Part shown: piece by piece, positions 31,800 to 43,062 of the stretch
How the letters are laid out: each line of letters begins with the position of its first letter
Numbering within the stretch: position 1 is the stretch's first letter
DNA from: Glycomyces sambucus
GTDB lineage: Bacteria > Actinomycetota > Actinomycetes > Mycobacteriales > Micromonosporaceae
Assembly: GCF_900102815.1 (NCBI RefSeq)
Contig: NZ_FNGF01000003.1
Coordinates: 186,001-250,000, forward strand
Direction: 5' to 3'
Length of the DNA stretch: 64,000 nt
Notes under the pieces: model-generated
The model's database searches: none
What the model was told of the DNA's origin: nothing
What the model saw: the letters and a program-made list of their open reading frames with translations, nothing else
Program-made: the position numbers and the translations under genes

Positions 31800-32675
31800 A
31801 TGGCGGCCGAATCTGACGCGCCGGAGCGCGGCGCCGAGACCGAGAAGCTCTGGAACGAGACCGGGGTGGACCCGGTCGAACTCCACCTGGGCAAGGACTC
31901 GGGGTACACCCTGCGCGCCTACCGGATGTCGGACACCCTCCCGGGTGCGAAGGCGGACCGGGACGCGGCCGAGGACGACGACACCGTTGACGGCACCGAC
32001 GAAGACGACGACGAGGGCGCCGAGGCCCTCGACGCCCTGGACCCGGACGGCGACCGCGAGCGGCCCGAGGCCGACGACGAGCGGGTGCTCCCCGAGGACC
32101 CCGACGCCGGCGAGCCCGACCCGGCCGACTTCGAGGACGAGGCCCCCGAGGCCGACGAGGCCGAGGAGGAGGACGCCCTCGACGCCGAGCCCGAGGAGGT
32201 CCCGGTCTTCCTGACCCGCAAGGGGAAGCTGCTGGTGTTCCGCGAGCGGGCCGCCCTCGTCGCGTACGTCAAGGGCAACGACGACCACGACCTCGCCGTC
32301 ATCGACGAGTACGCCGACCTCCGGGACCGCGTGGACGTGGACGACATCGTCTGTGACGAGAACGACATCTACGAGCTCGACCTCGTCGTCGCGAACCTCC
32401 GCGGCGGCCAGGAGGGCTGGGAGCCCGAGCTGCTCATCAAGGCCGCCGAGGCCGGCCGCGACCTCGGGTACGCGCTCAAGAACGACTCCGTCGTCGCCGC
32501 GCTCGCGCCCGGGTCCCCCCTCGACGACCTCGACGAGACCTTCCGCATCGTCGCCGAAGGCGGCCTCAAGGGCAGGTTCGCCAAGCGCCGCCTCAAGCGC
32601 AACGACCCGCAGCAGGCGGCCATCGCCTGGCGCGGCGTCATCGCGAAGATCAACGACCATGTGGAATGGCGCTGA
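31800..32675 (+). CDS. Acidic conserved-looking protein of unknown function
   Basis: A 291-residue protein I do not recognise by function. Residues 1-45 form a small domain (LWNETGVDPVELHLGKDSGYTLRAYR). Residues 52-138 are a strongly acidic, disordered Asp/Glu/Ala/Pro linker. Residues 139-291 form an alpha/beta domain (VPVFLTRKGKLLVFRER, then IYELDLVVANLRGGQEGWEPELLI) ending in a basic helix (KRRLKRNDPQQAAIAWR). The ATG at 31800 has GGGAGGG nine bases upstream. It is a single gene with its own terminator. No signal peptide or membrane segment is seen. The acidic linker with a basic end could suit a nucleic-acid-associated protein, but nothing proves it. Confidence 0.75.
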   Translation: MAAESDAPERGAETEKLWNETGVDPVELHLGKDSGYTLRAYRMSDTLPGAKADRDAAEDDDTVDGTDEDDDEGAEALDALDPDGDRERPEADDERVLPEDPDAGEPDPADFEDEAPEADEAEEEDALDAEPEEVPVFLTRKGKLLVFRERAALVAYVKGNDDHDLAVIDEYADLRDRVDVDDIVCDENDIYELDLVVANLRGGQEGWEPELLIKAAEAGRDLGYALKNDSVVAALAPGSPLDDLDETFRIVAEGGLKGRFAKRRLKRNDPQQAAIAWRGVIAKINDHVEWR

Positions 32676-32734: not shown

Positions 32735-32767
32735 CGGAGCCGCCGCGCCTGTCGCGCGGCGGCTCCG
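32735..32767 (+). terminator. Terminator of the acidic protein gene
   Basis: A perfect 14-bp stem (32735-32748 with 32754-32767) with a 5-base loop lies in the 314-base gap before the next gene. Further on, gcagaa/ttctgc (32875-32880 and 32888-32893) form a small inverted repeat in the presumed promoter region of the gene at 32990. Confidence 0.8.
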
Positions 32768-32989
32768 CTGCGTCATTCCACAAGGGAACACCCAGGTCGC
32801 GACTGCCAGCGAATTGACGGTTATGCCTGCTATGACCTTCGCTCCGTAGGTGAACCCGCACTGGTTGTCCGCTTGCAGAACCGAGTATTCTGCGGAAAAC
32901 TGATAACGGACTGGTAAAAACGGGCCGGGCTCCAGCCCCGGCGACAGGGGACAGCGCCGGCTGCGCGCCCTACGAGAGGAGCTCCGCGG

Positions 32990-34555
32990 GTGCAAGTGTT
33001 CTGCGGCATCACCACCGACCAGCAGGTGTCCGGGGCCGGGCACGGCGACACCGCGTGCGCCGTCGCCCTCGTCGCCGCGGGCGGCAGCCTCATCGCCACC
33101 GACACGTTCGGCGACGATCCGCGCGGCTGGGTCCGCCTCAACGGCCTCCTCGCCAGGTCGGCCCCCGGCCAGTCGGTCTCGGTCGCGGTGGACGGCGACG
33201 TCCTCCAGCTCGCCGAGTTCGCCGCCGCCGCCGGACAGCTCGTGGTCCGCGCCGACATCCCCGCCTCCCGCTCCAAGGACGCCCTCGACGACGCCATCGC
33301 GATCGCCCGCGGACTCGCCACCGGCGAGGTCGCCGGGCCGCCGCTCGCCGCACGCCCTGAGATGGCCGCTCTGCGCCCCATCCTGGACACGGTGGCCTCG
33401 GCCGCCAGGGCCCGCCACGACGCGGCAGAGGCGCTCACGTGCCTCCTGCGCGCGGTCTTCCCGGCGGCGCTGGCCGCGTGGGACGACCCGAGCGAGGCCA
33501 ACGCCGTCGCGATCCTCACCCGGCTCCCGCAGCCCGGTGCGCTCCAGTCCATCTCGACCGAGGAGCTCGCCGCCGACCTCGCGACCGTGGCCGACCCCGG
33601 CCAGGTCGCCGCGATGGCCGGCGCGCTCACCGAGGCGATCCGGGAGATCGGCGGCGGGGACGACCCGTCGGTGGCCCCCTCCGTCTCCGCGACCGCCGAC
33701 GCGGTCTCGGCATGGGACCGGTCCCTGGAGGGCCTCATCGGCCTGCTGCAGGCCAAGCGGCCCAAACCCGAAGCGGCGCCGCACGTCTCGCAGCCGCTCC
33801 CCCACCAGTCGCAGCCGCAGGTGCCGCAGCCGCAGGAGGACCGCACCGCGGCCGCCCGCAGGCGCGGCCGCGGGCACGACACCGACACGCACCGGACCGT
33901 CCGCCTCCCCGGGGACCTGCCCGACCGCCAGAGCCTGCGGGCCCTGGACCCGGCCTCGCAGCTCCACTCGGTGCTGCCGGACCTCGAAGCGACGCAGGTC
34001 ATCCCGGACTCGTTCTCGTCGCCGTCGATGCAGCAGCCGGTCGACTCCGAAGGCGGGCACACCCGCTCGATCCGGCGCCGCCGGGCCGAGCCGGCCGAGC
34101 TCCCCCACAACGACGACGCGCCGCGCCGCCACCCGTGGCAGCCGCGCGAGGACGTCAACATCGTCGACGTGGCGAGCCTCGCCGCCGACGACGACGGCCT
34201 GCTCATCTTCGGCCAGGCCAAGAGCGCCTGGTTCAAGCGGCCCGAGAGCGAAGAGCCCGAGACCGAGTCGTGGAACCTCCCCGGCGACGACGGGTGGCGC
34301 ACCGCCCGCTCGGCCACCGAGTCCCCCGCGACCGAGGAGCCGACTACGGCGGCGGGCCTGCCGCGGCGCAAGCCGCAGGCGAACCTCGTCCCAGGCGCGG
34401 TCGTCGCCGACGAGCACCCGCGCTTCGACGAGCCGATCGACCGCGACCCGGAGCTGCTGGCGCAGAACACCGCCGGTTACTTCCGGGGCTGGGGCCGCGC
34501 TCGCGGCGGACGTCCCGGCATGGCGTCGCGGACGGAGAGGATGGCGGCCCGATGA
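32990..34555 (+). CDS. IS110 transposase-like N-terminal domain joined to a conservon-kinase-like tail
   Basis: This is a 521-residue protein. Residues 3-200 follow the IS110 (DEDD/RuvC-like) transposase order: VFCGIT where transposases have VGID; a strand and turn GGSLIATDTFGDDPRGWVRL; VSVAVDGD at 63-70; SRSKDALDDA at 93-102, like the KSDAxDA motif; helices ending in LLRAVFPAALAAWDD at 152-166; and LTRLPQPGALQSIS at 176-189. The first catalytic Asp is Thr here. The IS110 C-terminal domain is absent. Residues 255-400 are disordered and Pro/Gln/Arg-rich. The tail has LLIFGQAKSAWFK at 404-416, DDGW at 433-436 and TTAAGLPRRKPQANLVPGAV at 452-471; related motifs occur in the kinase at 39301-42501. 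The GTG at 32990 and the stop overlap with the Roadblock gene (ATGA) indicate coupling. No terminal repeats are seen. Confidence 0.72.
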   Translation: MQVFCGITTDQQVSGAGHGDTACAVALVAAGGSLIATDTFGDDPRGWVRLNGLLARSAPGQSVSVAVDGDVLQLAEFAAAAGQLVVRADIPASRSKDALDDAIAIARGLATGEVAGPPLAARPEMAALRPILDTVASAARARHDAAEALTCLLRAVFPAALAAWDDPSEANAVAILTRLPQPGALQSISTEELAADLATVADPGQVAAMAGALTEAIREIGGGDDPSVAPSVSATADAVSAWDRSLEGLIGLLQAKRPKPEAAPHVSQPLPHQSQPQVPQPQEDRTAAARRRGRGHDTDTHRTVRLPGDLPDRQSLRALDPASQLHSVLPDLEATQVIPDSFSSPSMQQPVDSEGGHTRSIRRRRAEPAELPHNDDAPRRHPWQPREDVNIVDVASLAADDDGLLIFGQAKSAWFKRPESEEPETESWNLPGDDGWRTARSATESPATEEPTTAAGLPRRKPQANLVPGAVVADEHPRFDEPIDRDPELLAQNTAGYFRGWGRARGGRPGMASRTERMAAR

Positions 34556-34977
34556 GCGCCAATCTGGGCGTCTACGAGCGGTCCCTGAGCATGCTGCTCG
34601 GGTCGCTGGTGGCGCGCACTCCGGGGCTGTCGCACGCGGTCCTGGTGAGCGTCGACGGGCTGCCGCTCGCAGTGTCCGCCGGGCTGCCCAAGGAGCGCGC
34701 CGACCAATTGGCGGGCATCGGGTCCGGACTCCTGTCGATCGGCGAGGGTGCCGGGCGTTCGATGGACCACGGTCCGGCGCAGCAGGTCATCGTCGAGATG
34801 GCCGAGGGCGTGCTGCTCGCGGCTCCGGTCGGGCCGCAGATCTGCCTGACGCTGCTGGCGGTGTCGCAGTGCGACCGCGAGCAGCTCGGGTACGAGCTGG
34901 GGCAGTTCACGATGCAGGTGGGGCCGCTCCTCAACGAGGCCCTGACCAACACCGGCTCGATCCCGAAGGTCGTCTGA
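34552..34977 (+). CDS. Roadblock/LC7-domain protein (CvnB-like)
   Basis: A 141-residue Roadblock fold paralogous to the conservon protein at 38857-39255. Shared features include a GLSHAVLVSVDGLPLAVS strand pair, LPKERADQLAGIGSGLLSIGEGAG, VIVEMAEGVLLAAPVG and a final helix. In conservons this protein is the small-GTPase-associated scaffold. Here its partner is the transposase-like protein upstream, with which it overlaps by four bases; there is no kinase, DUF742 or GTPase in this small operon. It may use the GTPase of the full conservon 3 kb away, which is inference. Confidence 0.88.
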   Translation: MSANLGVYERSLSMLLGSLVARTPGLSHAVLVSVDGLPLAVSAGLPKERADQLAGIGSGLLSIGEGAGRSMDHGPAQQVIVEMAEGVLLAAPVGPQICLTLLAVSQCDREQLGYELGQFTMQVGPLLNEALTNTGSIPKVV

Positions 34978-35243: not shown

Positions 35244-35377
35244 CGAACAATCCTCATCAAAGTTCACTCTTCAGGGTGTTGGCACCTCTCTCAACATCAG
35301 TCACAATTGAGTCACAACCATCGAACAGGCACACGGAAAACAGCAAGGCATTCGAGAACAGAACGGGGGTGACACCG

Positions 35378-37465
35378 ATGGCGACCAATCCGAGCGACCA
35401 GGCCCAGGCCATCAGGACCACCCTCGAATCCGCTGCCGACCTCATCAACGCCCAGTACGCTCAGGTGCTCTCCGCGGTCATCGCGATGAAGCAGGCGAAC
35501 CTCCACCGCACCGCCTTCGGCTACTCGGCCCTGCGCGACCTGTTGCTCTCCCAGTTCGACTTCACCTATGCGACAGCGGGTTCGATCGCTGCCATCGCAC
35601 GGCTGTCGACGAAGTTCCGGACGCTGGCGGCAGCAGCCACCTCAGGCAGGGCGAGGATCGACCAGGTCGCCTACGCAGTACGGCAGTTGGACAAGACTCC
35701 GGCAATGCGACTGTTCGCCCGCACCCCCTTCCGGGAACCGGTGGCCTCCCCCTTCGATGCGGACACCCTCTGCGCGACACCCGAACACCTGATCGCCGAG
35801 TACTGCGAGCACGCCCCCTTCAAGGACCTCCAGCGCCACTTGGACGAGCTGGCGGCGCACCTGGCCGAGGAAGACGAACTCCTCGACGGCCTCGGCGAGC
35901 AGTCCCTCCAGTGGATCGAACTCGCGGAGCAGGGCAACGGCATGTGGGCGCTGTCGGGCGAGCTGTCGTGGGACACCGGCCTCCTGCTGGACAAGTACCT
36001 TCAGACCGCCTGCCCGCCTCCGCGCCAGGAGGAAGCCGAATCCGAGCCCGGTGAAACGACCGGACTGCTCCCCGCCGCACCCAACCGCCACGCCGAAGCC
36101 CTCCACCAACTCCTCGCCGGATACGGCTCCTCCCCCGAAGCGGCGAAGCGCCACGGCCACACCGCCACGCTCGACCTGACCGTCGACATCCACGCCCTCC
36201 AGGGCCGGCACACCGGCCAGGCCGACACGAGCGCCGAAGCAACGGGCGCGACATCACAGCAGGGCCCGGGCACCACCCGCACGCCGCTCTTGGAAGGCCG
36301 ACCGATCAGCATCGCCAAGGCCCGCCTGCTCGCCTGCGACACCAAGGTCATCCCCTCGGTCTTCGACTACGAAAGCGGCGAAGCGATCGAACTCGGCCGC
36401 ACCGCCCGCCTCCCTAACGCCTCGCTGCGCAGAAAGCTCGAACTCGAACAACGTGACGGCTGCGCTTGGAACGGTTGTTCGCGGCCGGTGGCCTGGGCCG
36501 AGGCGCACCACATCGTGCACTGGGCGGACGGCGGTGAGACGAACGCCGACAACCTGATCCTCCTGTGCCGCTTCCACCATGGTCGGATCCACACCATGGG
36601 CTGGAGCGTCGAGAAGACCGGGCCCGGTCAGGCGGTCATCACTCACCACGACCACCTTCTGATCGAGGACGGGAATGCCGGGCAGGGCGGGTGCGGGTGC
36701 GCGGACTGGCGCAGCGATACCGACATCGACGCCGAGAACCAGGGTTCCGACTGGGATGTGTTCCCGACCGGGCTCTATCGGTCCGAGTGGTCCGAGGGGC
36801 TGAAACCGGACCTCGATGCCAGAGCCGAAGCGGCCGAGAGGCAACGTGCCCTGGCCGCCATCAGAGCAGCCCGAGCCAAATGCCGAGACAGATTCGCACC
36901 ACCCCAGGTGCCGGGCAAGACCGCACCACCCGAGACCGCAGGGAAGGCGGCACCTCCTGAAGCGCCCGGCCCTGCGAAGTCGACAGCACGACCGGTCGAT
37001 CCCGGAGACCTCGGCGACCCGCCCTTCTTAGGCCGCCCGCTCCGGACCGGCCGGGGCGGGGGAAGGGAAGGCCCGCAAGTGCAATGCCTCCCAGCTCGGA
37101 CCCCACCAGGTCCGGGCCCACCGCCACGCCCAGGCCCGGAGTACCGACCCGCTCCCCCGCCCACCTCACCCTCGCTGCCTCAGGACCTGCACCCGCACAA
37201 CGCAGAAGGTCGAAAGACCCGCCCACATACCCACCCGCCTTCGCTGCCCCAAGACCCGCACTGGTGCGAGGCGGAGACTTGGAGCGCCACCCCGAAGACC
37301 CACCCGCCGTCGCCGCCTCAAGACCTGTACCCACGCAGCGCGGAAAGCCGAAGCGCCGCCTCCGAATCGCCCGCCCTTCGCCGCTTCAAGACCCGCACCC
37401 ACGCAACGCGGAGAGCCGAAGACGTCACACCGGAATCAACCCGCCGTCATCGCTGCCCGCTCTGA
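35378..37465 (+). CDS. DUF222 / HNH endonuclease family protein (13E12-like)
   Basis: A 695-residue protein of the class called 13E12 repeat family in mycobacteria. The N-terminal DUF222 part is helical (about 5-310: ALRDLLLSQFDFTYATAGSI, QVAYAVRQLDK). The HNH nuclease domain follows: RDGCAWNGCSRPVAWAEAHH, IVHWADGGETNADNLILLC, RFHHGRIH, with Zn cysteines and the HH metal pair intact. Residues beyond about 500 are a Pro-rich, low-complexity tail; its last 100 residues are the translation of a 69-base repeat array (PSLPQDLHPHN, PSLPQDPHWCE, PSPPQDLYPRS). A rare TTA Leu codon is at 37028-37030. An in-frame GTG at 35369 is an alternative start. Base composition is less GC-biased than its neighbours, consistent with a mobile origin. 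Confidence 0.85.
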   Translation: MATNPSDQAQAIRTTLESAADLINAQYAQVLSAVIAMKQANLHRTAFGYSALRDLLLSQFDFTYATAGSIAAIARLSTKFRTLAAAATSGRARIDQVAYAVRQLDKTPAMRLFARTPFREPVASPFDADTLCATPEHLIAEYCEHAPFKDLQRHLDELAAHLAEEDELLDGLGEQSLQWIELAEQGNGMWALSGELSWDTGLLLDKYLQTACPPPRQEEAESEPGETTGLLPAAPNRHAEALHQLLAGYGSSPEAAKRHGHTATLDLTVDIHALQGRHTGQADTSAEATGATSQQGPGTTRTPLLEGRPISIAKARLLACDTKVIPSVFDYESGEAIELGRTARLPNASLRRKLELEQRDGCAWNGCSRPVAWAEAHHIVHWADGGETNADNLILLCRFHHGRIHTMGWSVEKTGPGQAVITHHDHLLIEDGNAGQGGCGCADWRSDTDIDAENQGSDWDVFPTGLYRSEWSEGLKPDLDARAEAAERQRALAAIRAARAKCRDRFAPPQVPGKTAPPETAGKAAPPEAPGPAKSTARPVDPGDLGDPPFLGRPLRTGRGGGREGPQVQCLPARTPPGPGPPPRPGPEYRPAPPPTSPSLPQDLHPHNAEGRKTRPHTHPPSLPQDPHWCEAETWSATPKTHPPSPPQDLYPRSAESRSAASESPALRRFKTRTHATRRAEDVTPESTRRHRCPL

Positions 37466-37668: not shown

Positions 37669-38256
37669 TTAGTGGACGCCGACGGTGCGGGTGCGCCGCA
37701 TCGACAGCACGTACTCGACGAGCTTGATGAGCACCTGCTTGGTGGACTCGCGGTTGCGCGCGTCGGTGTACACCACGGGGACGTCCTGCGAGATCTGCAG
37801 TGCGTCGCGGATGTCCTGGATCTCGTGGAGCTGCTTGCCGTCGAAGCAGTTCACGGCCACCAGGTACGGGAGCTTGCGGTGCTCGAAGAAGTCGATGACC
37901 GAAAAGCAGTCGGCGAGGCGCCGCGTGTCGACCAGGACGATGGCGCCGATCGCGCCGCGCACCAGCTCGTCCCACATGAACCAGAAGCGGGTCTGGCCCG
38001 GGGTGCCGAACAGGTACAGGATCAGGTCCTGGTCGATCGTGATGCGGCCGAAGTCCATCGCGACGGTGGTCGTCGCCTTGTCGGGCACCAGGTTGTTGTC
38101 GTCGACGCCCTCTGAGGCGGAGGTCATGATCGCCTCGGTCGTCAACGGGGTGATCTCGGAGACCGAGCCGACCAAGGTCGTCTTGCCGACGCCGAAGCCA
38201 CCGGCGATGACGATCTTGGCAGAGGTCACACGAGAGGTGTCTGCGGGTGAGTTCAT
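37669..38256 (-). CDS. Conservon GTPase (CvnD type)
   Basis: A 195-residue small Ras-like/MglA-like GTPase. P-loop GGFGVGKTT near 19-27, switch II FGTPGQ, and a base-recognition motif NCFD in place of NKxD. It is the output G-protein of the conservon, thought to cycle between membrane complex and cytoplasm under control of the Roadblock and kinase proteins. The last gene of the operon, it ends 94 bases before a strong terminator. Six bases separate it from the DUF742 gene. Confidence 0.93.
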   Translation of the reverse strand: MNSPADTSRVTSAKIVIAGGFGVGKTTLVGSVSEITPLTTEAIMTSASEGVDDNNLVPDKATTTVAMDFGRITIDQDLILYLFGTPGQTRFWFMWDELVRGAIGAIVLVDTRRLADCFSVIDFFEHRKLPYLVAVNCFDGKQLHEIQDIRDALQISQDVPVVYTDARNRESTKQVLIKLVEYVLSMRRTRTVGVH

Positions 38257-38262
38257 TAGGGT

Positions 38263-38640
38263 CTATAGCCTCCTGAGTCCACTGAGAACGCGCTCAAGGA
38301 GCTCGGTTCCGACCGATCCGTCGCCGCCGTCCGCGTCGAAACCGGTGGGTTCGTGCACTGCCAACAAGCCGTCGGCCGCCATGTCGGCGACCAGCACGCG
38401 GGCGACGCCGAGCGGCACCTCCATGCGTGCGGCGATCTCGGCCAGCGACTGCAGCCGGCCGCCGCACAGGTCGACGATCACCTTCTGCTCCCTGCCGCCG
38501 AGGAACTGCCCGGACCGGCCGCGCGCGGTGGTCTCCACCAGCGCTTCGAGGGCGATCTCCAATTGGGGCCGCGTGCGGCCGCGCGTGACCGCGTACGGTC
38601 TGACGAGTGAGCCAGTAGGCTCATCACCACCGAGGACCAT
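38263..38640 (-). CDS. DUF742 protein of the conservon (CvnC type)
   Basis: A 125-residue protein with the DUF742 signature SLVRPYAVTRGRTRP near the N-terminus and a winged-helix-like C-terminal part (QSLAEIAARMEVPLGVARVLVADMAADGLL). I chose the ATG at 38640 because GGAGG stands six bases upstream; the longer frame to 38841 begins in a region without coding character. This leaves a 216-base gap after the Roadblock gene, longer than usual in conservons and room for an internal promoter. Confidence 0.9.
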   Translation of the reverse strand: MVLGGDEPTGSLVRPYAVTRGRTRPQLEIALEALVETTARGRSGQFLGGREQKVIVDLCGGRLQSLAEIAARMEVPLGVARVLVADMAADGLLAVHEPTGFDADGGDGSVGTELLERVLSGLRRL

Positions 38641-38856
38641 TGTTACCTCCAACCACGGCACTTGATCCCACAATCCTTGTGCCGCAGTCTTGTCAGTTAT
38701 CCATGTACCGCGTGCCCGGGGAGGCACCGGCCCGTCGCCTGGGGATGCGACGGAGGGGTTCTTGTTCAGTTCGTCCCACTCGTGCTGCGTTCCGCTCGAA
38801 TGGAGCCTACCGTGCCGCAACCCGTTGCGCCAAGCGCGCACCGGAAGCGGCCCGGA

Positions 38857-39255
38857 TCAGCTTCGGGCCGAAGGCGTCAGGGCCTGGCCGACCCGGTCGA
38901 CCAGGAGGGCCATCTCGTAGCCGACCTGGCCCACGTCGCAGTTCTTCGACGCCAGCACCGCGAACGAGGAACCGTCGCTGATGGACATCAGGAACAGGAA
39001 TCCACGGTCCATCTCGACCACCGTCTGGAGGACGGCGCCGCCCTCGAAGCAGCGGGACGCGCCCTGGGTCAGGCTCACCAGACCCGAGGTCACCGCCGAC
39101 AGCTGGTCGGCGCGGTCCCTTGGCAGGTCCCGGGAGGACGCCAGCAGCAGACCGTCGGCGCTGACCGCGACGGCGTGGGCCACGCCCGGCACGCGTTCGG
39201 CGAAGCCGGCCAGCAGCCAGCCCAGGTCCTGGACCGAGGTTCCACCAGTGCTCAT
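38857..39255 (-). CDS. Roadblock/LC7 protein of the conservon (CvnB type)
   Basis: A 132-residue Roadblock fold: [32 protein letters not shown], then [20 protein letters not shown] and [19 protein letters not shown]. It should bind the GTPase CvnD and link it to the kinase CvnA. It lies 45 bases after the kinase stop. Its paralogue at 34552-34977 is coupled to the transposase-like protein. Confidence 0.92.
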
Positions 39256-39300
39256 CGTTTGCGCTCCTTAGTAGCGTCTGCCGTGTTGCGGATCAGCGAC

Positions 39301-42300
39301 TCAGTTGCCGTCATTGCCACGTCCTCGCTGCACCCCACGGTGATAGGCCGACAGCAGGCCACGAATGCCCTCAGGGTTGCGCTTCTGCGCGCTGACGGTC
39401 TCCTGAGATTCCTCCACCGCGCCGGGAACGAGGCGTTCCATGGGCCGGCGCTTGGGGAGACCGACCGTGGTCGTCTCCTCGATGGTCTCGGCGAAGGCGT
39501 CGTCGACCCGGGACCACCCGTCGTCGGCGGCGGTGCGCCACGCGTAGGACCCGGTGTCGGTCTCCGGAGAGGTGAGACGGCGTCGCTCGAGACCCGAGGC
39601 GGCCGGCGACTCGTCGGCGGCGGGGGTGCTCTGCATGGTCGGGCCTTCCGTGGGCTGCGGAGGGGAGGGCGGCACCGCGTCCCAAGCCGGGGCGGGGGAC
39701 TCGGCCGCACCTGACTGGTCAGCGTAGCGCGGCGGCGTAGCCTCCGCCACCTCCGCAGGTGCAGGCGGGGCCGCCCGGAAGGACGACTCGGGCGCGTCCT
39801 CGACCTTCGCCGACTCGTCATCGACCTTCTTGGGCGCGGGGGTGACCGCCTTGAACCAGGCGGACTCCACCTCCCGGAAGATCGGGAGCTCGGTCGTGGC
39901 GTCCAGGGCGGACACGCGGTCGCGGCGGGCGGCCCGCGGCGCCTCCGTGCCGGACGGGGCCGCGGCCACGTCGGGCCACGACGGCGGCACCGGCTCGGGC
40001 TCGGGCGTCCACGCCTCCAGCTGGATCTTCGGCAGGGCGACGTGCTCGGAGGAGACGATCTCCCCGGTCACCTCCATGACCTTGCCGTTGGCCTTGCGCT
40101 CGTCGGCCAGGCCGCCGGGCCGGAACATGAAGCCCGGCTCCTCGTCGGCGGGGCGCTGCTGCGGGAACGGCGGCTGGAACGCCTGCGTCTGCTGCGGGCG
40201 CTGCACCGAGTACTCGCCGGTGACCGGCTCGACGGGCGGCGGGACGTTCGGGCGCGAGGGCATCTGCGGCGCGCTCGGCTGCCACGCGGGCGGCGTGGGC
40301 TGGGGCGGCGGCGGGGAGTGCGGGGCCTGGGGCGCGGCGGTGTCGAACAGGCCCGCCGGGCTCTCGGGGACCCGCGGCAGGGCGCCGGTGGCCTCCATGC
40401 CGGAGAGCAGTTCGCGGGAGCCGTTCGCGCCATCGAGCGGGACGCCGCTGCGCAGGCCGCGCTCGGGGAGCTTCGCCTCGGTGAGGACCGCGTCGCCCAG
40501 GATGACCTCGGCGACCGTGCCGCGCTGCTCGCCCGGGCGCAGTTCGACGTGGACCTCGTGGCGCTTCGCGAGGCGCGCGACCACGACCAGGCCCATCATC
40601 CGCGAGGACGCGAGGTCGATGGCGTCGGCGGACTCCGAGAGCTGGCGGTTGATGTCCTCGATCTGCGCCGGCGGCATGCCGATGCCGACGTCGTTGATGC
40701 GGACCCGGATGGCGCCGTTGGGGCTGCCGGCCGTGCGCATCTGCTCGGCCTCGACCAGTACCGGGGACTCCGGCGGGGAGAACGCGGTCGCGTTGTCCAT
40801 GAGCTCGGCGATGAGGTGCACGAGGTCGTTGACGGCGGCCGGGCGGATCTCCCGCTCGGCCTCCAGGCTGCCGAAGTCGATGCGGGTGTACTGCTCGACC
40901 TCGGACTGGGCGGCCTGGAGGATGTCGCCGATCGGGGCCGGGTAGCGCTCCTGGCGGGTGGAGTCCGCACCGGCGAGCACCAGGAGGTTCTCGTCGTTGC
41001 GGCGCATGCGGGTCGCGAGGTGGTCGAGCTGGAACAGCTCGGCCAGGCGGTCCGGGTTCTCCTCGCCGCGCTCCAGGTGGTCGAGGTGGCCGATGAGCCG
41101 GTCGACCAGGTTCTGGGAGCGGCGGGCCAGGTTGATGAACATCTGCGAGACGTTGGCGCGCAGGGCGGCCTGCTCGGCCGCGATGCGGATGGCCTCGGTG
41201 TGGACGATGTTGAACGAGTGCGCCACGTTGCCGATCTCGTCGCGCTGGTCGATGTCGATGACCGCGCCGGTGTCGGCGGCGACCTCGTCCGGGGTCCGGT
41301 TGCCGATGCTCTCCGCGTCGCGCATCTGGGCCACCGCCTGCGGCAGCGACACGTGCGCCACGTCCAGCGCGCCCTCGCGCAGGCGCCGCAGCCCGGTCGC
41401 CATGTTGCGGGCGATGAGCAGGGCGATCACGGTCGCGATGACGAAGGCCGCCAGGATGAGCACGGCTTCGAGCAGCAGCTGGAAGATCTGCGAGTTGAGG
41501 TCGGCGGTCGCGTCGTCGAGGACTTCCTCGGACTCGTCGTTGATGTAGTCGAGGCCGTTCTCGAGGATCGCGTTGTACGAGTCGATGACGGCGGCGTCGA
41601 CGGTGAGCGCCTGCGTGGTGCCGGCGTTGACCGCGGAGTTCTCGAACAGGAGGGCCGCCTCGGCCTCGGTGGTGTTGAGGCCCCCGGGGCTGAAGAAGAA
41701 CGCGAGCTGCTCGTTGCGGTCGGCGACGGTCTTGAATTCGTCGGCGGCGGTCTCGCGGAGCTTCGCGAAGGCGATGAAGTTCTGCCAGCGCGTGTTGTTG
41801 ATGAACTTCTTGTCGTTGCCGACGTTGATCGCGATCGCGCGCTCCTCCTCCAGCGTCTCCAGGACGGTGGTGGCGGCGGCGATGGCCTGCAGGTTCCGGG
41901 CGATCTCGGGGTCGTTGACGATACGGGAGGAGATGTCGGTGATCGTCACGAGCTCGTCGACGAGCCGCTGGTAGACGCGGGAGGTCGCGTCGATCGACAC
42001 GCCGTCGGGGCTGTCGGCCGCGGCCTGGCGGATCTGGATGAGGCTCTCGTACTGGGTCCGGACCGCGTCGATGCGGTTGGAGATGTCGTCCGAGACGTCG
42101 GGGAGGCCGTCGGCCTTCTCGTTGAAGACGTCCAGGGCCTCGTCGGTGGACGCCTGCTGGGCGGCCACGGCGGTCTCGTCGTACTGGGAGACGTCGATGC
42201 CCTCGACGTGGTCCTCGCCGAGCCGCAGGTTCGTGACGAGCAGGGACCGCTCGACCTGGAGGTCGTAGCGGAGTTCGGCCGTGACGGCGTTGAACTCCAC

Positions 42301-42501
42301 GAGGTCCACCATGTCGGCCGACTCGAACACCCGGTTCGCCAGGTCGTAGAGCCGGAGGCCGGCGACGGCCACCAGGACGACGAGGGGCACGAGGAGGATC
42401 AGTCCCAGCTTGGACCGGATTCGCATGTCGGCGATGCGGGGCAGGCCGAGCGGTCCTCGTCGAGCCGCTGAACCCGCACGGTTCGAGCTGCGCTTGCTCA
42501 C
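39301..42501 (-). CDS. Conservon sensor histidine kinase with nitrate-sensing (NIT) domain (CvnA type)
   Basis: A 1066-residue membrane kinase. A basic N-terminus is followed by one helix (SKLGLILLVPLVVLVAVAGL), an extracellular NIT sensor domain (about 60-350, helical), a second helix (LLEAVLILAAFVIATVIALLIA), HAMP, a dimerisation helix with candidate phospho-His in LDHLATRMRRNDENLL, and HATPase (ELMDNATAFSPP, NDVGIGMPP). The last 400 residues are disordered, with terminal motifs ELPIFREVESAWFK (about 871-884), DDGW and TTVGLPKRRPMERLVPGAVE (about 1011-1030). The GTG at 42501 has AGGAGG nine bases upstream. NIT domains sense nitrate/nitrite in known cases. No response regulator is adjacent; output is through the B-C-D proteins. 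Confidence 0.92.
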   Translation of the reverse strand: MSKRSSNRAGSAARRGPLGLPRIADMRIRSKLGLILLVPLVVLVAVAGLRLYDLANRVFESADMVDLVEFNAVTAELRYDLQVERSLLVTNLRLGEDHVEGIDVSQYDETAVAAQQASTDEALDVFNEKADGLPDVSDDISNRIDAVRTQYESLIQIRQAAADSPDGVSIDATSRVYQRLVDELVTITDISSRIVNDPEIARNLQAIAAATTVLETLEEERAIAINVGNDKKFINNTRWQNFIAFAKLRETAADEFKTVADRNEQLAFFFSPGGLNTTEAEAALLFENSAVNAGTTQALTVDAAVIDSYNAILENGLDYINDESEEVLDDATADLNSQIFQLLLEAVLILAAFVIATVIALLIARNMATGLRRLREGALDVAHVSLPQAVAQMRDAESIGNRTPDEVAADTGAVIDIDQRDEIGNVAHSFNIVHTEAIRIAAEQAALRANVSQMFINLARRSQNLVDRLIGHLDHLERGEENPDRLAELFQLDHLATRMRRNDENLLVLAGADSTRQERYPAPIGDILQAAQSEVEQYTRIDFGSLEAEREIRPAAVNDLVHLIAELMDNATAFSPPESPVLVEAEQMRTAGSPNGAIRVRINDVGIGMPPAQIEDINRQLSESADAIDLASSRMMGLVVVARLAKRHEVHVELRPGEQRGTVAEVILGDAVLTEAKLPERGLRSGVPLDGANGSRELLSGMEATGALPRVPESPAGLFDTAAPQAPHSPPPPQPTPPAWQPSAPQMPSRPNVPPPVEPVTGEYSVQRPQQTQAFQPPFPQQRPADEEPGFMFRPGGLADERKANGKVMEVTGEIVSSEHVALPKIQLEAWTPEPEPVPPSWPDVAAAPSGTEAPRAARRDRVSALDATTELPIFREVESAWFKAVTPAPKKVDDESAKVEDAPESSFRAAPPAPAEVAEATPPRYADQSGAAESPAPAWDAVPPSPPQPTEGPTMQSTPAADESPAASGLERRRLTSPETDTGSYAWRTAADDGWSRVDDAFAETIEETTTVGLPKRRPMERLVPGAVEESQETVSAQKRNPEGIRGLLSAYHRGVQRGRGNDGN

Positions 42502-43062
42502 CTTGTCTAGCCTCCTGGGGTGGTCCTCTGTGTCAGACCGACGGGCCCGTGCCGGGCCGGGCTCGGTCTCGGGCCGACGGCGCGCGCCGGCTGCCGTCCT
42601 GCCGCCGGGGGCGGCGGGGGCCGGCATGTGAAGCCCAGCAGATTCCATCATGACGAATGACGGCGTCGAAATCCAGGGGCGTACCGGAGTACTGAAAGCG
42701 GCTCCGTATCGCACCGTGTTACAGGGCGAATCTCAAGAAACACTGATCTTTCGGACACACGCCTACGCGGTATTCGGCCGTACGGCTGAGAAAACCGACT
42801 ACTCGGACGACGACCGTGGCGCTGAACGGCCCTGACCGCCTCCGACGAAGGTCGCCGCGACCGAGTGCCCTGATCCGGGCACGTTCGGTAGTGCCCGAAA
42901 GGCGGCATTGGTCCGGTGGCGCGGCATCCCCGGGCGCCCACGGGTTCCGGACAGATCCGCCATATCCGTCGCCGCGTCCGGGACAACTCGCACATCCTGT
43001 GCGACGGGAGACGCCTCCCGCTCGGGCACGGTTGACCCACGACGCCCCGCAGGAGGAACCCC
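42502..43062. promoter_or_regulatory. Divergent control region with mutually exclusive hairpins
   Basis: The 561 bases between the conservon and the MHYT genes hold no convincing gene. On the plus strand gtgccc (42865-42870), gggcac (42877-42882) and gtgccc (42891-42896) allow two alternative hairpins sharing the middle segment; the second extends to 7 bp (42876-42882 with 42891-42897). They lie about 170 bases ahead of the first MHYT start and would be in its leader if transcription starts upstream. The ribosome site AGGAGG for that gene is at 43051-43056. A promoter for the kinase is expected near 42650-42740 but is not clear. Confidence 0.4.

What the first reader, a model, noticed from the sequence alone, without database searches (positions are those of the whole stretch)
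32990..34555. Apparent domesticated IS110 transposase domain in a signalling operon
Residues 3-200 follow the segment order of IS110 RuvC-like transposase domains (GIT for GID, a KDALDD block for KSDAxDA, helices ending FPAALAAWDD, then a PQPGALQSIS stretch). The first catalytic Asp is replaced by Thr, and VAVDGD stands where I expect an IE pair. The second IS110 domain is missing. In its place is a long disordered region and a C-terminus shared with the conservon kinase. The gene is coupled by a 4-base overlap to a Roadblock gene, and no element ends are seen. This looks like a transposase fold recruited as a binding or scaffold protein, possibly for a guide-like RNA, since IS110 relatives use a bridge RNA.
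Basis: partly seen in the sequence, partly recalled or inferred. Interest (0 to 1): 0.85.

Follow-up and report, generated by a model that had tools for sequence, protein, structure and literature searches.

The report
Dead transposase recruited into signalling operon
A jumping-gene enzyme that lost its cutting site and its second half became a fixed, usually single-copy gene in nearly all sampled members of one bacterial family, joined to the tail of a signalling kinase and, in what looks like its older form, paired with a GTPase-regulator-type protein.

Summary
The reading of the sequence is right. The gene at 32990-34555 encodes 521 aa in a Glycomyces genome. Residues 1-~260 are an IS110 transposase RuvC domain plus coiled coil: BLASTP to an IS110 transposase E 1e-12, profile-profile E 1.8e-22 over 262 columns, two orthologs above Pfam's PF01548 cut-off, matching AlphaFold folds. 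The second domain is missing and the DEDD tetrad is broken: first Asp in 0 of 47 homologs against 24 of 24 transposases. Homologs form one clade, 100/99, with matches in 296 of 300 family genomes: a fixed host gene. The C-terminus is the tail of conservon kinases (E 4e-19). A Roadblock gene follows in 34 of 47 loci, the CvnA-CvnB order; the tree needs one change, read as one loss. The guide-RNA idea is not supported: the upstream gap is mostly ~70 nt outside Glycomyces and the surface has turned acidic. Best reading: a catalytically dead, dimerising scaffold in place of the kinase CvnA that presents a Roadblock protein to conservon G-protein signalling. Origin near certain; function inferred.

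The parts
32990..34555 (+). IS110-derived gene (called X here), 521 aa, GTG start
32990..33322 (+). Residues 1-111: RuvC/RNase H-like domain, catalytic site broken (tetrad D-E-D-D reads T8-D68-A98-D101)
33356..33754 (+). Residues 123-255: helical/coiled-coil module with the long insert of the actinobacterial IS110 transposases compared here
33773..34183 (+). Residues ~262-398: Pro/Gln/Arg-rich linker, presumed disordered; residues 262-385 are the fastest evolving part (dN/dS 0.44)
   Evidence: disorder itself not computed
34184..34552 (+). Residues 399-521: conservon-kinase (CvnA-type) tail with motifs LLIF..xxSAWF, DxGW, GLPRRxPQANLVPG and YFxGW
34552..34977 (+). Roadblock/LC7 gene (Ra), ATGA overlap with X, 141 aa
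   Evidence: PF03259 E 5.6e-18; ATGA in 20 of 20 other Glycomyces loci, dN/dS 0.025
31800..32675 (+). Upstream gene U, distantly SatS-like, precedes X in 46 of 47 loci examined
32870..32929 (+). Block conserved 93-96% among 21 Glycomyces sequences upstream of X; probable promoter/leader (inferred)
37669..42714 (-). Convergent complete conservon: GTPase 37669-38256, DUF742 38263-38841, Roadblock 38857-39255, NIT-HAMP-HATPase kinase 39301-42714

Best explanation
The gene is a domesticated IS110 transposase. Shown: the RuvC domain and coiled coil of an IS110 transposase, without the Tnp domain and with a broken DEDD tetrad, is followed by a linker and a tail homologous to that of conservon sensor kinases (CvnA). 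It is a conserved, mostly single-copy gene of the family that holds Glycomyces. Inferred: an IS110 gene and the 3' end of a cvnA-like gene became one reading frame, next to that gene's cvnB-like Roadblock partner. Inferred function: the coiled coil dimerises the protein, as in IS621; the dead RuvC domain is a structural platform; the CvnA-type tail holds a Roadblock protein, as CvnA is hypothesised to hold CvnB. X would thus be a kinase-less CvnA that presents a Roadblock regulator to a Ras-like GTPase, most simply the CvnD of the convergent conservon. In genera that lost the adjacent Roadblock gene, X would use another, such as the CvnB of that conservon.
For: Origin: BLASTP to IS110 transposase L136, 30% over 233 aa, E 1e-12; hhalign Prob 99.5, E 1.8e-22, 262 columns against an unrelated control of Prob 0.3, E 0.19; PF01548 above Pfam's cut-off of 29 bits in the orthologs of G304 (42.8) and G340 (32.4; tail confirmed), below it in several more; 18 of 47 members match PF01548 at E<=1, the next family 6 of 47. 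Fold: pLDDT 91, nearly the same order of elements as an IS110 control model. Dead site: first Asp 0/47, third 3/47, fourth 5/47, against 24/24 each in transposases. One clade 100/99. Constraint: matches in 296/300 genomes, dN/dS 0.30 in Glycomyces. Tail: E 4e-19, 37% identity over 79 columns. Roadblock directly after X in 34/47 loci, one change on the tree, dN/dS 0.025 in Glycomyces. Published hypothesis that CvnA9 is bound by CvnB9 and CvnC9: passages of PMC8510531.
Against: No interaction, localisation or phenotype was tested. 13 of 47 loci have X with its tail but no adjacent Roadblock gene. No cvnC or cvnD was found in the X operon, and the convergent conservon was not seen in 6 non-Glycomyces loci. 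The strong constraint on the coiled coil in Glycomyces (dN/dS 0.07 and 0.04 against 0.32 for RuvC) is reversed in 30 genus-g2 sequences (0.19-0.24 against 0.08) and does not follow Roadblock presence in other genera, so the binding surface is not settled. Foldseek of the X model against PDB gave only weak hits (best E 0.03, Nop5; none at E<=0.001; IS621 not among the 50 shown), while the IS110 control found IS621 at 8e-9. Binding of a CvnA-type tail to Roadblock is inferred; none of the passages I read states it.
Confidence: 0.55

Rival explanations
1. X is still a nucleic-acid-binding, perhaps RNA-guided regulator, like the nuclease-dead TnpB proteins (TldR), using the IS110 coiled coil to hold an RNA made elsewhere in the genome.
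For: The IS110 part C-terminal to RuvC binds bridge RNA and resembles Nop RNA-binding proteins (passages of PMC11208158 and PMC12045711). The best, though weak, fold hit is Nop5 of the box C/D RNP (E 0.03). TldR shows that dead transposon nucleases can keep RNA guidance (passages of PMC13418256).
Against: The Tnp half that completes the composite site is gone. Mean net charge of the coiled-coil module is -4.4 in 47 homologs against +3.6 in 24 transposases; K/R in the insert 5.4% against 12.6%; RuvC -10 against -1.9. The gap to the upstream gene is mostly about 70 nt outside Glycomyces, too small for a 177-nt bridge RNA. No credible Rfam match. The Glycomyces gap (246-336 nt in the 14 loci measured) is conserved above 90% only in a ~60-nt block and next to the start codon.
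Confidence: 0.1
2. X mainly acts on the convergent conservon: its CvnA-type tail competes with the kinase's own tail for CvnB, so X is a decoy or antagonist rather than the head of a separate X-Roadblock module.
For: The convergent conservon is visible near X in 34 of 47 loci and the tails are homologous. It is near X in 13 of the 13 loci that have no adjacent Roadblock gene, in some with one gene between.
Against: 34 of 47 loci have a Roadblock gene directly after X, with ATGA overlap and dN/dS 0.025 in Glycomyces. The conservon was not seen near X in four g4 loci, one g83 locus and G305.
Confidence: 0.25
3. X is a dominant-negative protector against IS110 elements, mixing with their transposases through the coiled coil.
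For: The dimerisation module is kept. None of the three Glycomyces genomes has a PF01548 match at E<=10.
Against: Other family genomes that carry X have many PF01548 matches (G303 16, G319 22, at E<=10). The kinase tail and the Roadblock pairing stay unexplained.
Confidence: 0.03
4. X is a decaying IS110 copy or a chance resemblance.
For: Pfam and NCBIfam scans of the window protein alone show no IS110 match.
Against: Matches in 296 of 300 family genomes, dN/dS 0.30, one clade, conserved gene order.
Confidence: 0.01

Closest known systems
IS110 family transposases (PF01548 + PF02371; IS621, ISCro4)
   Same: RuvC domain and coiled coil, collinear over 262 columns; nearly the same order of fold elements
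   Different: No Tnp domain, tetrad broken, single copy in the window genome, little room for a bridge RNA upstream in most genera, kinase-type tail added
Conservon (actinobacterial G-protein system) sensor kinase CvnA
   Same: C-terminal tail and position directly before a Roadblock gene
   Different: No HATPase, HAMP or NIT match in X; no cvnC or cvnD found in the same operon
Conservon accessory proteins CvnE (P450) and CvnF (GAF)
   Same: Extra proteins linked to conservons; CvnF8 modulates its kinase (passages of PMC13343842)
   Different: X has neither fold; it carries the kinase's own tail and precedes a Roadblock
TldR (TnpB-like nuclease-dead repressors)
   Same: Transposon RNA-guided nuclease inactivated and tied to non-transposon genes (passages of PMC13418256)
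   Different: Another transposase family; TldR keeps guide RNA and DNA binding, X shows no sign of either
Piv invertase of Moraxella
   Same: IS110-related protein outside an insertion sequence (passages of PMC11187229)
   Different: Piv needs its DEDD and SG motifs and inverts DNA (same passages and the titles they cite); X lacks them

Membership tests
IS110 transposase | N-terminal DEDD_Tnp_IS110 (PF01548) domain by homology | tested here: met
   Met for the family and for the window protein by BLASTP; the window protein alone gives no Pfam match at E<=10
IS110 transposase | Intact DEDD catalytic tetrad | tested here: not met
   Window T-D-A-D; first Asp 0/47. Mutation of any of the four abolished IS621 recombination (passages of PMC11208158)
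IS110 transposase | C-terminal Tnp domain with catalytic serine (PF02371) | tested here: not met
   No Pfam match in 521 aa; alignment ends before that domain
IS110 transposase | Adjacent noncoding region for bridge/seek RNA | tested here: inconclusive
   Upstream gap 44-135 nt in the non-Glycomyces loci measured, except 251 and 287 nt in two; 246-336 nt in 14 Glycomyces loci, without credible Rfam match in the window. Downstream noncoding space was not surveyed for RNA
IS110 transposase | Mobility: several copies, scattered positions | tested here: not met
   Single copy, mostly one match per genome, conserved neighbours. A plasmid search with the window N-terminus was empty, a weak test
Conservon (cvnABCD) | CvnA kinase with HATPase domain at the head of the operon | tested here: not met
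   No HATPase match in X
Conservon (cvnABCD) | CvnA-type C-terminal tail | tested here: met
   hhalign Prob 99.15, E 4e-19; that this tail defines CvnA is my generalisation from 22 kinases seen
Conservon (cvnABCD) | Roadblock gene directly downstream (cvnB position) | tested here: met
   Window and 33 of 46 other loci
Conservon (cvnABCD) | DUF742 (cvnC) and Ras-like GTPase (cvnD) in the same operon | tested here: not met
   Found only in the convergent conservon on the other strand
RNA-guided dead-nuclease regulators (TldR-like) | Bound guide RNA | not testable with these tools
   Only indirect evidence, against

The most novel reading that the evidence does not exclude
X kept a weak or altered RNA-binding ability in its IS110 coiled coil and uses it as the sensory input of a small-GTPase circuit: an RNA-responsive, kinase-less conservon in which a dead bridge-RNA recombinase gates a Roadblock regulator.
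Probability: 0.06. Interest if true: 0.95.

Novelty: new variant of a known kind. Interest (0 to 1): 0.66.

Why it matters
In the passages I read, an IS110-related protein outside an insertion sequence is an active recombinase (Piv), and dead RNA-guided transposon nucleases are DNA-binding regulators (TldR). Here an IS110 domain seems to have become a protein-binding part of a G-protein signalling system, once, and to have been kept in nearly every sampled genome of one family of actinobacteria. It would widen the known uses of transposase folds and point to the CvnA tail as a candidate Roadblock-binding module. It also warns that some of these genes may be auto-named IS110 transposases, since PF01548 and NF033542 match some orthologs.

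Tried and rejected
Single-sequence Pfam and NCBIfam scans of the window protein gave no IS110 match (a TIGR00120 match at E 0.05-0.17 is far below its cut-off). Sequence search of the PDB with the family profile found no IS621 (best E 0.45), while the profile of complete IS110 transposases found it at 1.6e-44, mainly through the Tnp domain that X lacks. Foldseek of the X model was weak and was calibrated with a control model. VIA-align was not available.

I considered that the Roadblock binds the helical module, because that module is the most constrained part of X in Glycomyces. It failed: the pattern reverses in genus-g2 genomes and does not follow Roadblock presence in the eight groups compared.

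Search for the fusion outside the family: of 296 class genomes, 22 match at E<=1e-8, 3 of them of the family. The non-family places have open frames of 208-451 aa, as IS110 genes or parts of them, except one of 756 aa (L170), which on reading is a complete IS110 transposase with a longer open frame. The others were judged by length only, only 8 candidates per genome were scored, and sister families were not targeted. Looking for the pre-fusion site through gene U failed: of 196 class genomes 17 match, 3 of the same family and 14 weak ones in family f8.

The first tree held transposase rows read in a wrong frame (L166, L171, L172; L168 was dropped by the program) and was discarded; one search replaces it. 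One search used 37 of the 47 rows of A1: ten close relatives were left out beforehand; the Roadblock state was scored on 32 rows (5 unknown). A1 is the window plus 46 of 109 N-terminal regions kept by an 82% identity filter; two of the 111 loci with a hit (L095, L100) were left out before that as incomplete, and some of the 111 are the same gene fetched twice. A2 uses 27 of 31 transposases found (L054, L132, L145, L151 left out); A3 uses 24 of those 27 (L050, L053, L153 left out because they start or read poorly). A4 uses 24 of 26 X tails and A5 19 of 22 kinase tails.

Paper searches that could have shown an earlier report of this protein gave none in their listings; the library lacks most subscription journals. 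Searches were background searches.

Full report
WHAT IS THERE. The window lies in genome G000, contig C9. I take it for a Glycomyces because the best named contigs are Glycomyces with 97% identity. The gene, called X here, runs 32990-34555 on the + strand, 521 aa with a GTG start. It is single-copy. All 20 relatives returned from the genome collection by a patterned search that reaches close relatives only are Glycomyces, best-segment identity 75-97%. Other genomes bear group codes, no names; where the finding or I say Micromonospora-type (genus g2), that name is recalled and comes from no call.

IS110 ORIGIN. With a query from a g2 ortholog, 296 of 300 genomes of the same family and 43 of 44 genera have a match, mostly one per genome; the three weakest (G305, G337, G382) were confirmed as X by tail and gene order. 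Seven weak hits of the first order-wide search were read and are IS110 transposases; two of them are repeated genes. Pfam's own PF01548 model rings over its cut-off of 29 bits in the orthologs of G304 (42.8 bits) and G340 (32.4), and below it in the orthologs of G309, G334, G332 and G333 among others; G340 was read and carries the CvnA-type tail, as do G345 and G325. Of 47 family members scanned one by one, 18 match PF01548 at E<=1 (best 1.6e-10); the next family matches 6, best E 0.13. NCBIfam's IS110 model matches 3 of 47 (best 8.6e-9); ten other models match one or two members, best 7e-4. Profile against profile, family N-termini (A1, 47 rows) and 27 IS110 transposases (A2) align over 262 columns, Prob 99.5, E 1.8e-22; an unrelated control gave Prob 0.3, E 0.19. 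The window protein itself aligns with transposase L136 at 30% identity over 233 aa, E 1e-12 for that one comparison.

FOLD. AlphaFold2 of residues 1-265 reached pLDDT 91.2, pTM 0.87. An IS110 control (L136) reached pLDDT 93.1, pTM 0.77. The order of elements is nearly the same, strand-strand-strand-helix-strand-helix-strand-helix and then the coiled-coil arm with its helical insert; the control has one more helix (82-91) and X one short helix more (123-126). Foldseek against PDB is weak for X (best: Nop5 of the box C/D RNP, E 0.03, then various RNase H-like and other proteins, none at E<=0.001), while the control finds IS621 at 8e-9 and Nop5 at 4.6e-5. A link between IS110 and Nop proteins is published (passages of PMC12045711). 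X has drifted, but keeps this fold.

DEAD CATALYTIC SITE, NO TNP DOMAIN. In a joint alignment of 47 family members and 24 transposases the first Asp is D in 24/24 transposases and 0/47 family members (T in the window); the Glu site is E 18, D 6 against D 40, E 1, others 6 (window D); the third Asp is 24/24 against 3/47 (window A); the fourth 24/24 against 5/47 (window D). In IS621 mutation of any of these residues or of Ser241 abolished recombination, and the domains are RuvC 1-122, coiled coil 123-188, Tnp 189-326 (passages of PMC11208158). X stops before Tnp. That X is inactive is inferred from these residues, not measured.

A FIXED HOST GENE. A maximum-likelihood tree of 37 family and 24 transposase N-termini separates the family by one branch, 100/99, in 100% of 200 bootstrap trees. 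This holds for the transposases sampled. Median pairwise dN/dS in 21 Glycomyces sequences (simple counting method) is 0.30 overall: RuvC part 0.32, helical part 0.074, last helix 0.041, linker 0.44, tail (residues 390-507) 0.31. In 30 genus-g2 sequences the order is reversed: RuvC part 0.083, helical parts 0.19 and 0.24. Protein distances in eight groups and one cross comparison do not tie the pattern to the Roadblock gene. In 296 class genomes no clear case outside the family was seen at E<=1e-8 (judged by frame length, one read).

THE TAIL. The tail query from 34160-34525 matches the convergent conservon kinase of the same genome (E 2.9e-9), an 847-aa frame on contig C11 (E 5e-5) and, barely, a 550-aa frame on C7 (E 0.04). 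Profiles of 24 X tails and 19 conservon kinase tails match at Prob 99.15, E 4e-19, 37% identity over 79 columns. Shared motifs include IF...xSAWF, DxGW, T..GLP+R.P...LVPG and a final Y.xG..R (the first lies outside the scored 79 columns).

NEIGHBOURS. Of 47 loci read (window, 20 Glycomyces, 26 others), X carries the tail in 47, gene U precedes it in 46, a Roadblock gene follows it directly in 34, and the convergent conservon is visible in 34. Of the 13 loci without a visible conservon, seven are Glycomyces loci with only 2-5 kb of sequence after X, where it may lie just beyond; in the other six (G157, G337, G370, G382, G304, G305) it was not seen in the stretch held. The 13 loci without the Roadblock gene are g2 and related genera. 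On the tree the Roadblock state needs one change among 32 scored rows; because both sides of the deepest family split have it, one loss is the simplest reading (some inner forks are weak). In Glycomyces the two genes share ATGA in 20 of 20 other loci, and the Roadblock protein has dN/dS 0.025. Pfam gives PF03259 for it and recognises the GTPase, DUF742, Roadblock and kinase of the conservon.

RNA. The gap between U and X is mostly 66-75 nt outside Glycomyces (U end motif found in 100 of 111 loci, some of them the same gene fetched twice), too small for a 177-nt bridge RNA. In 14 Glycomyces loci it is 246-336 nt, conserved above 90% in a block at 32870-32929 and next to the start codon, which looks like a promoter and leader. 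Rfam gave only one chance-level microRNA match (E 0.12, 24 bits against a gathering score of 100). The coiled-coil module has mean net charge -4.4 against +3.6 in transposases, and the RuvC part -10 against -1.9; 20 of the 24 transposases come from the same family, so a general acidic bias of the proteome is partly controlled for. Ranges overlap (-14 to 0 against -3 to 9 for the coiled coil), and rows are related, so no p-value is given. Downstream noncoding space was not surveyed.

HOW IT MAY WORK. In the published hypothesis CvnA is bound by CvnB and CvnC, and CvnB resembles MglB, which acts on a Ras-like GTPase (passages of PMC8510531). Known accessory proteins are a P450 or a GAF protein (passages of PMC13343842). 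X has the CvnA tail and the cvnA position before a Roadblock gene, but an IS110 dimerisation and RuvC platform in place of the kinase. I infer a kinase-less CvnA-like scaffold for a Roadblock regulator. Everything after homology, gene order and constraint is inference.

VERDICT. Origin as a domesticated IS110 domain with a broken catalytic site: about 0.97. Fusion to a conservon-type tail: about 0.97. Scaffold role with Roadblock: about 0.55. RNA-guided or nucleic-acid-binding role: about 0.1.

Noticed in passing
window 31800-32675 (+): Gene U, which precedes X in nearly every locus, is distantly related to the mycobacterial protein-export chaperone SatS (NF050072, E 5e-7 to 1e-9 in three orthologs, far below the curated cut-off of 700 bits); it has a long acidic stretch and no Pfam match.
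   Followed up: partly
window 35276-37465 (+): An HNH/DUF222 endonuclease-type gene lies between the Roadblock gene and the convergent conservon.
   Followed up: no
window 32735-32767: Perfect 14-nt inverted repeat with a 5-nt loop between U and X, possibly a terminator of U; with the conserved block at 32870-32929 it suggests separate transcription of X in Glycomyces.
   Followed up: no
L055-L084 against window and L001-L020: The selection pattern along X is reversed between Glycomyces (coiled coil most constrained) and genus-g2 genomes (RuvC part most constrained); unexplained.
   Followed up: partly
L043-L047, L190-L196, L198: In the loci without an adjacent Roadblock gene the listed X tails run on past the CvnA-type part with a GGRPGR...GW-F motif, and the open frame of X is often longer (650-930 aa against 490-620 in most of the others).
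   Followed up: no
G000, G070, G105: No PF01548 match at E<=10 in any of the three Glycomyces genomes searched, while other family genomes have up to 22.
   Followed up: no
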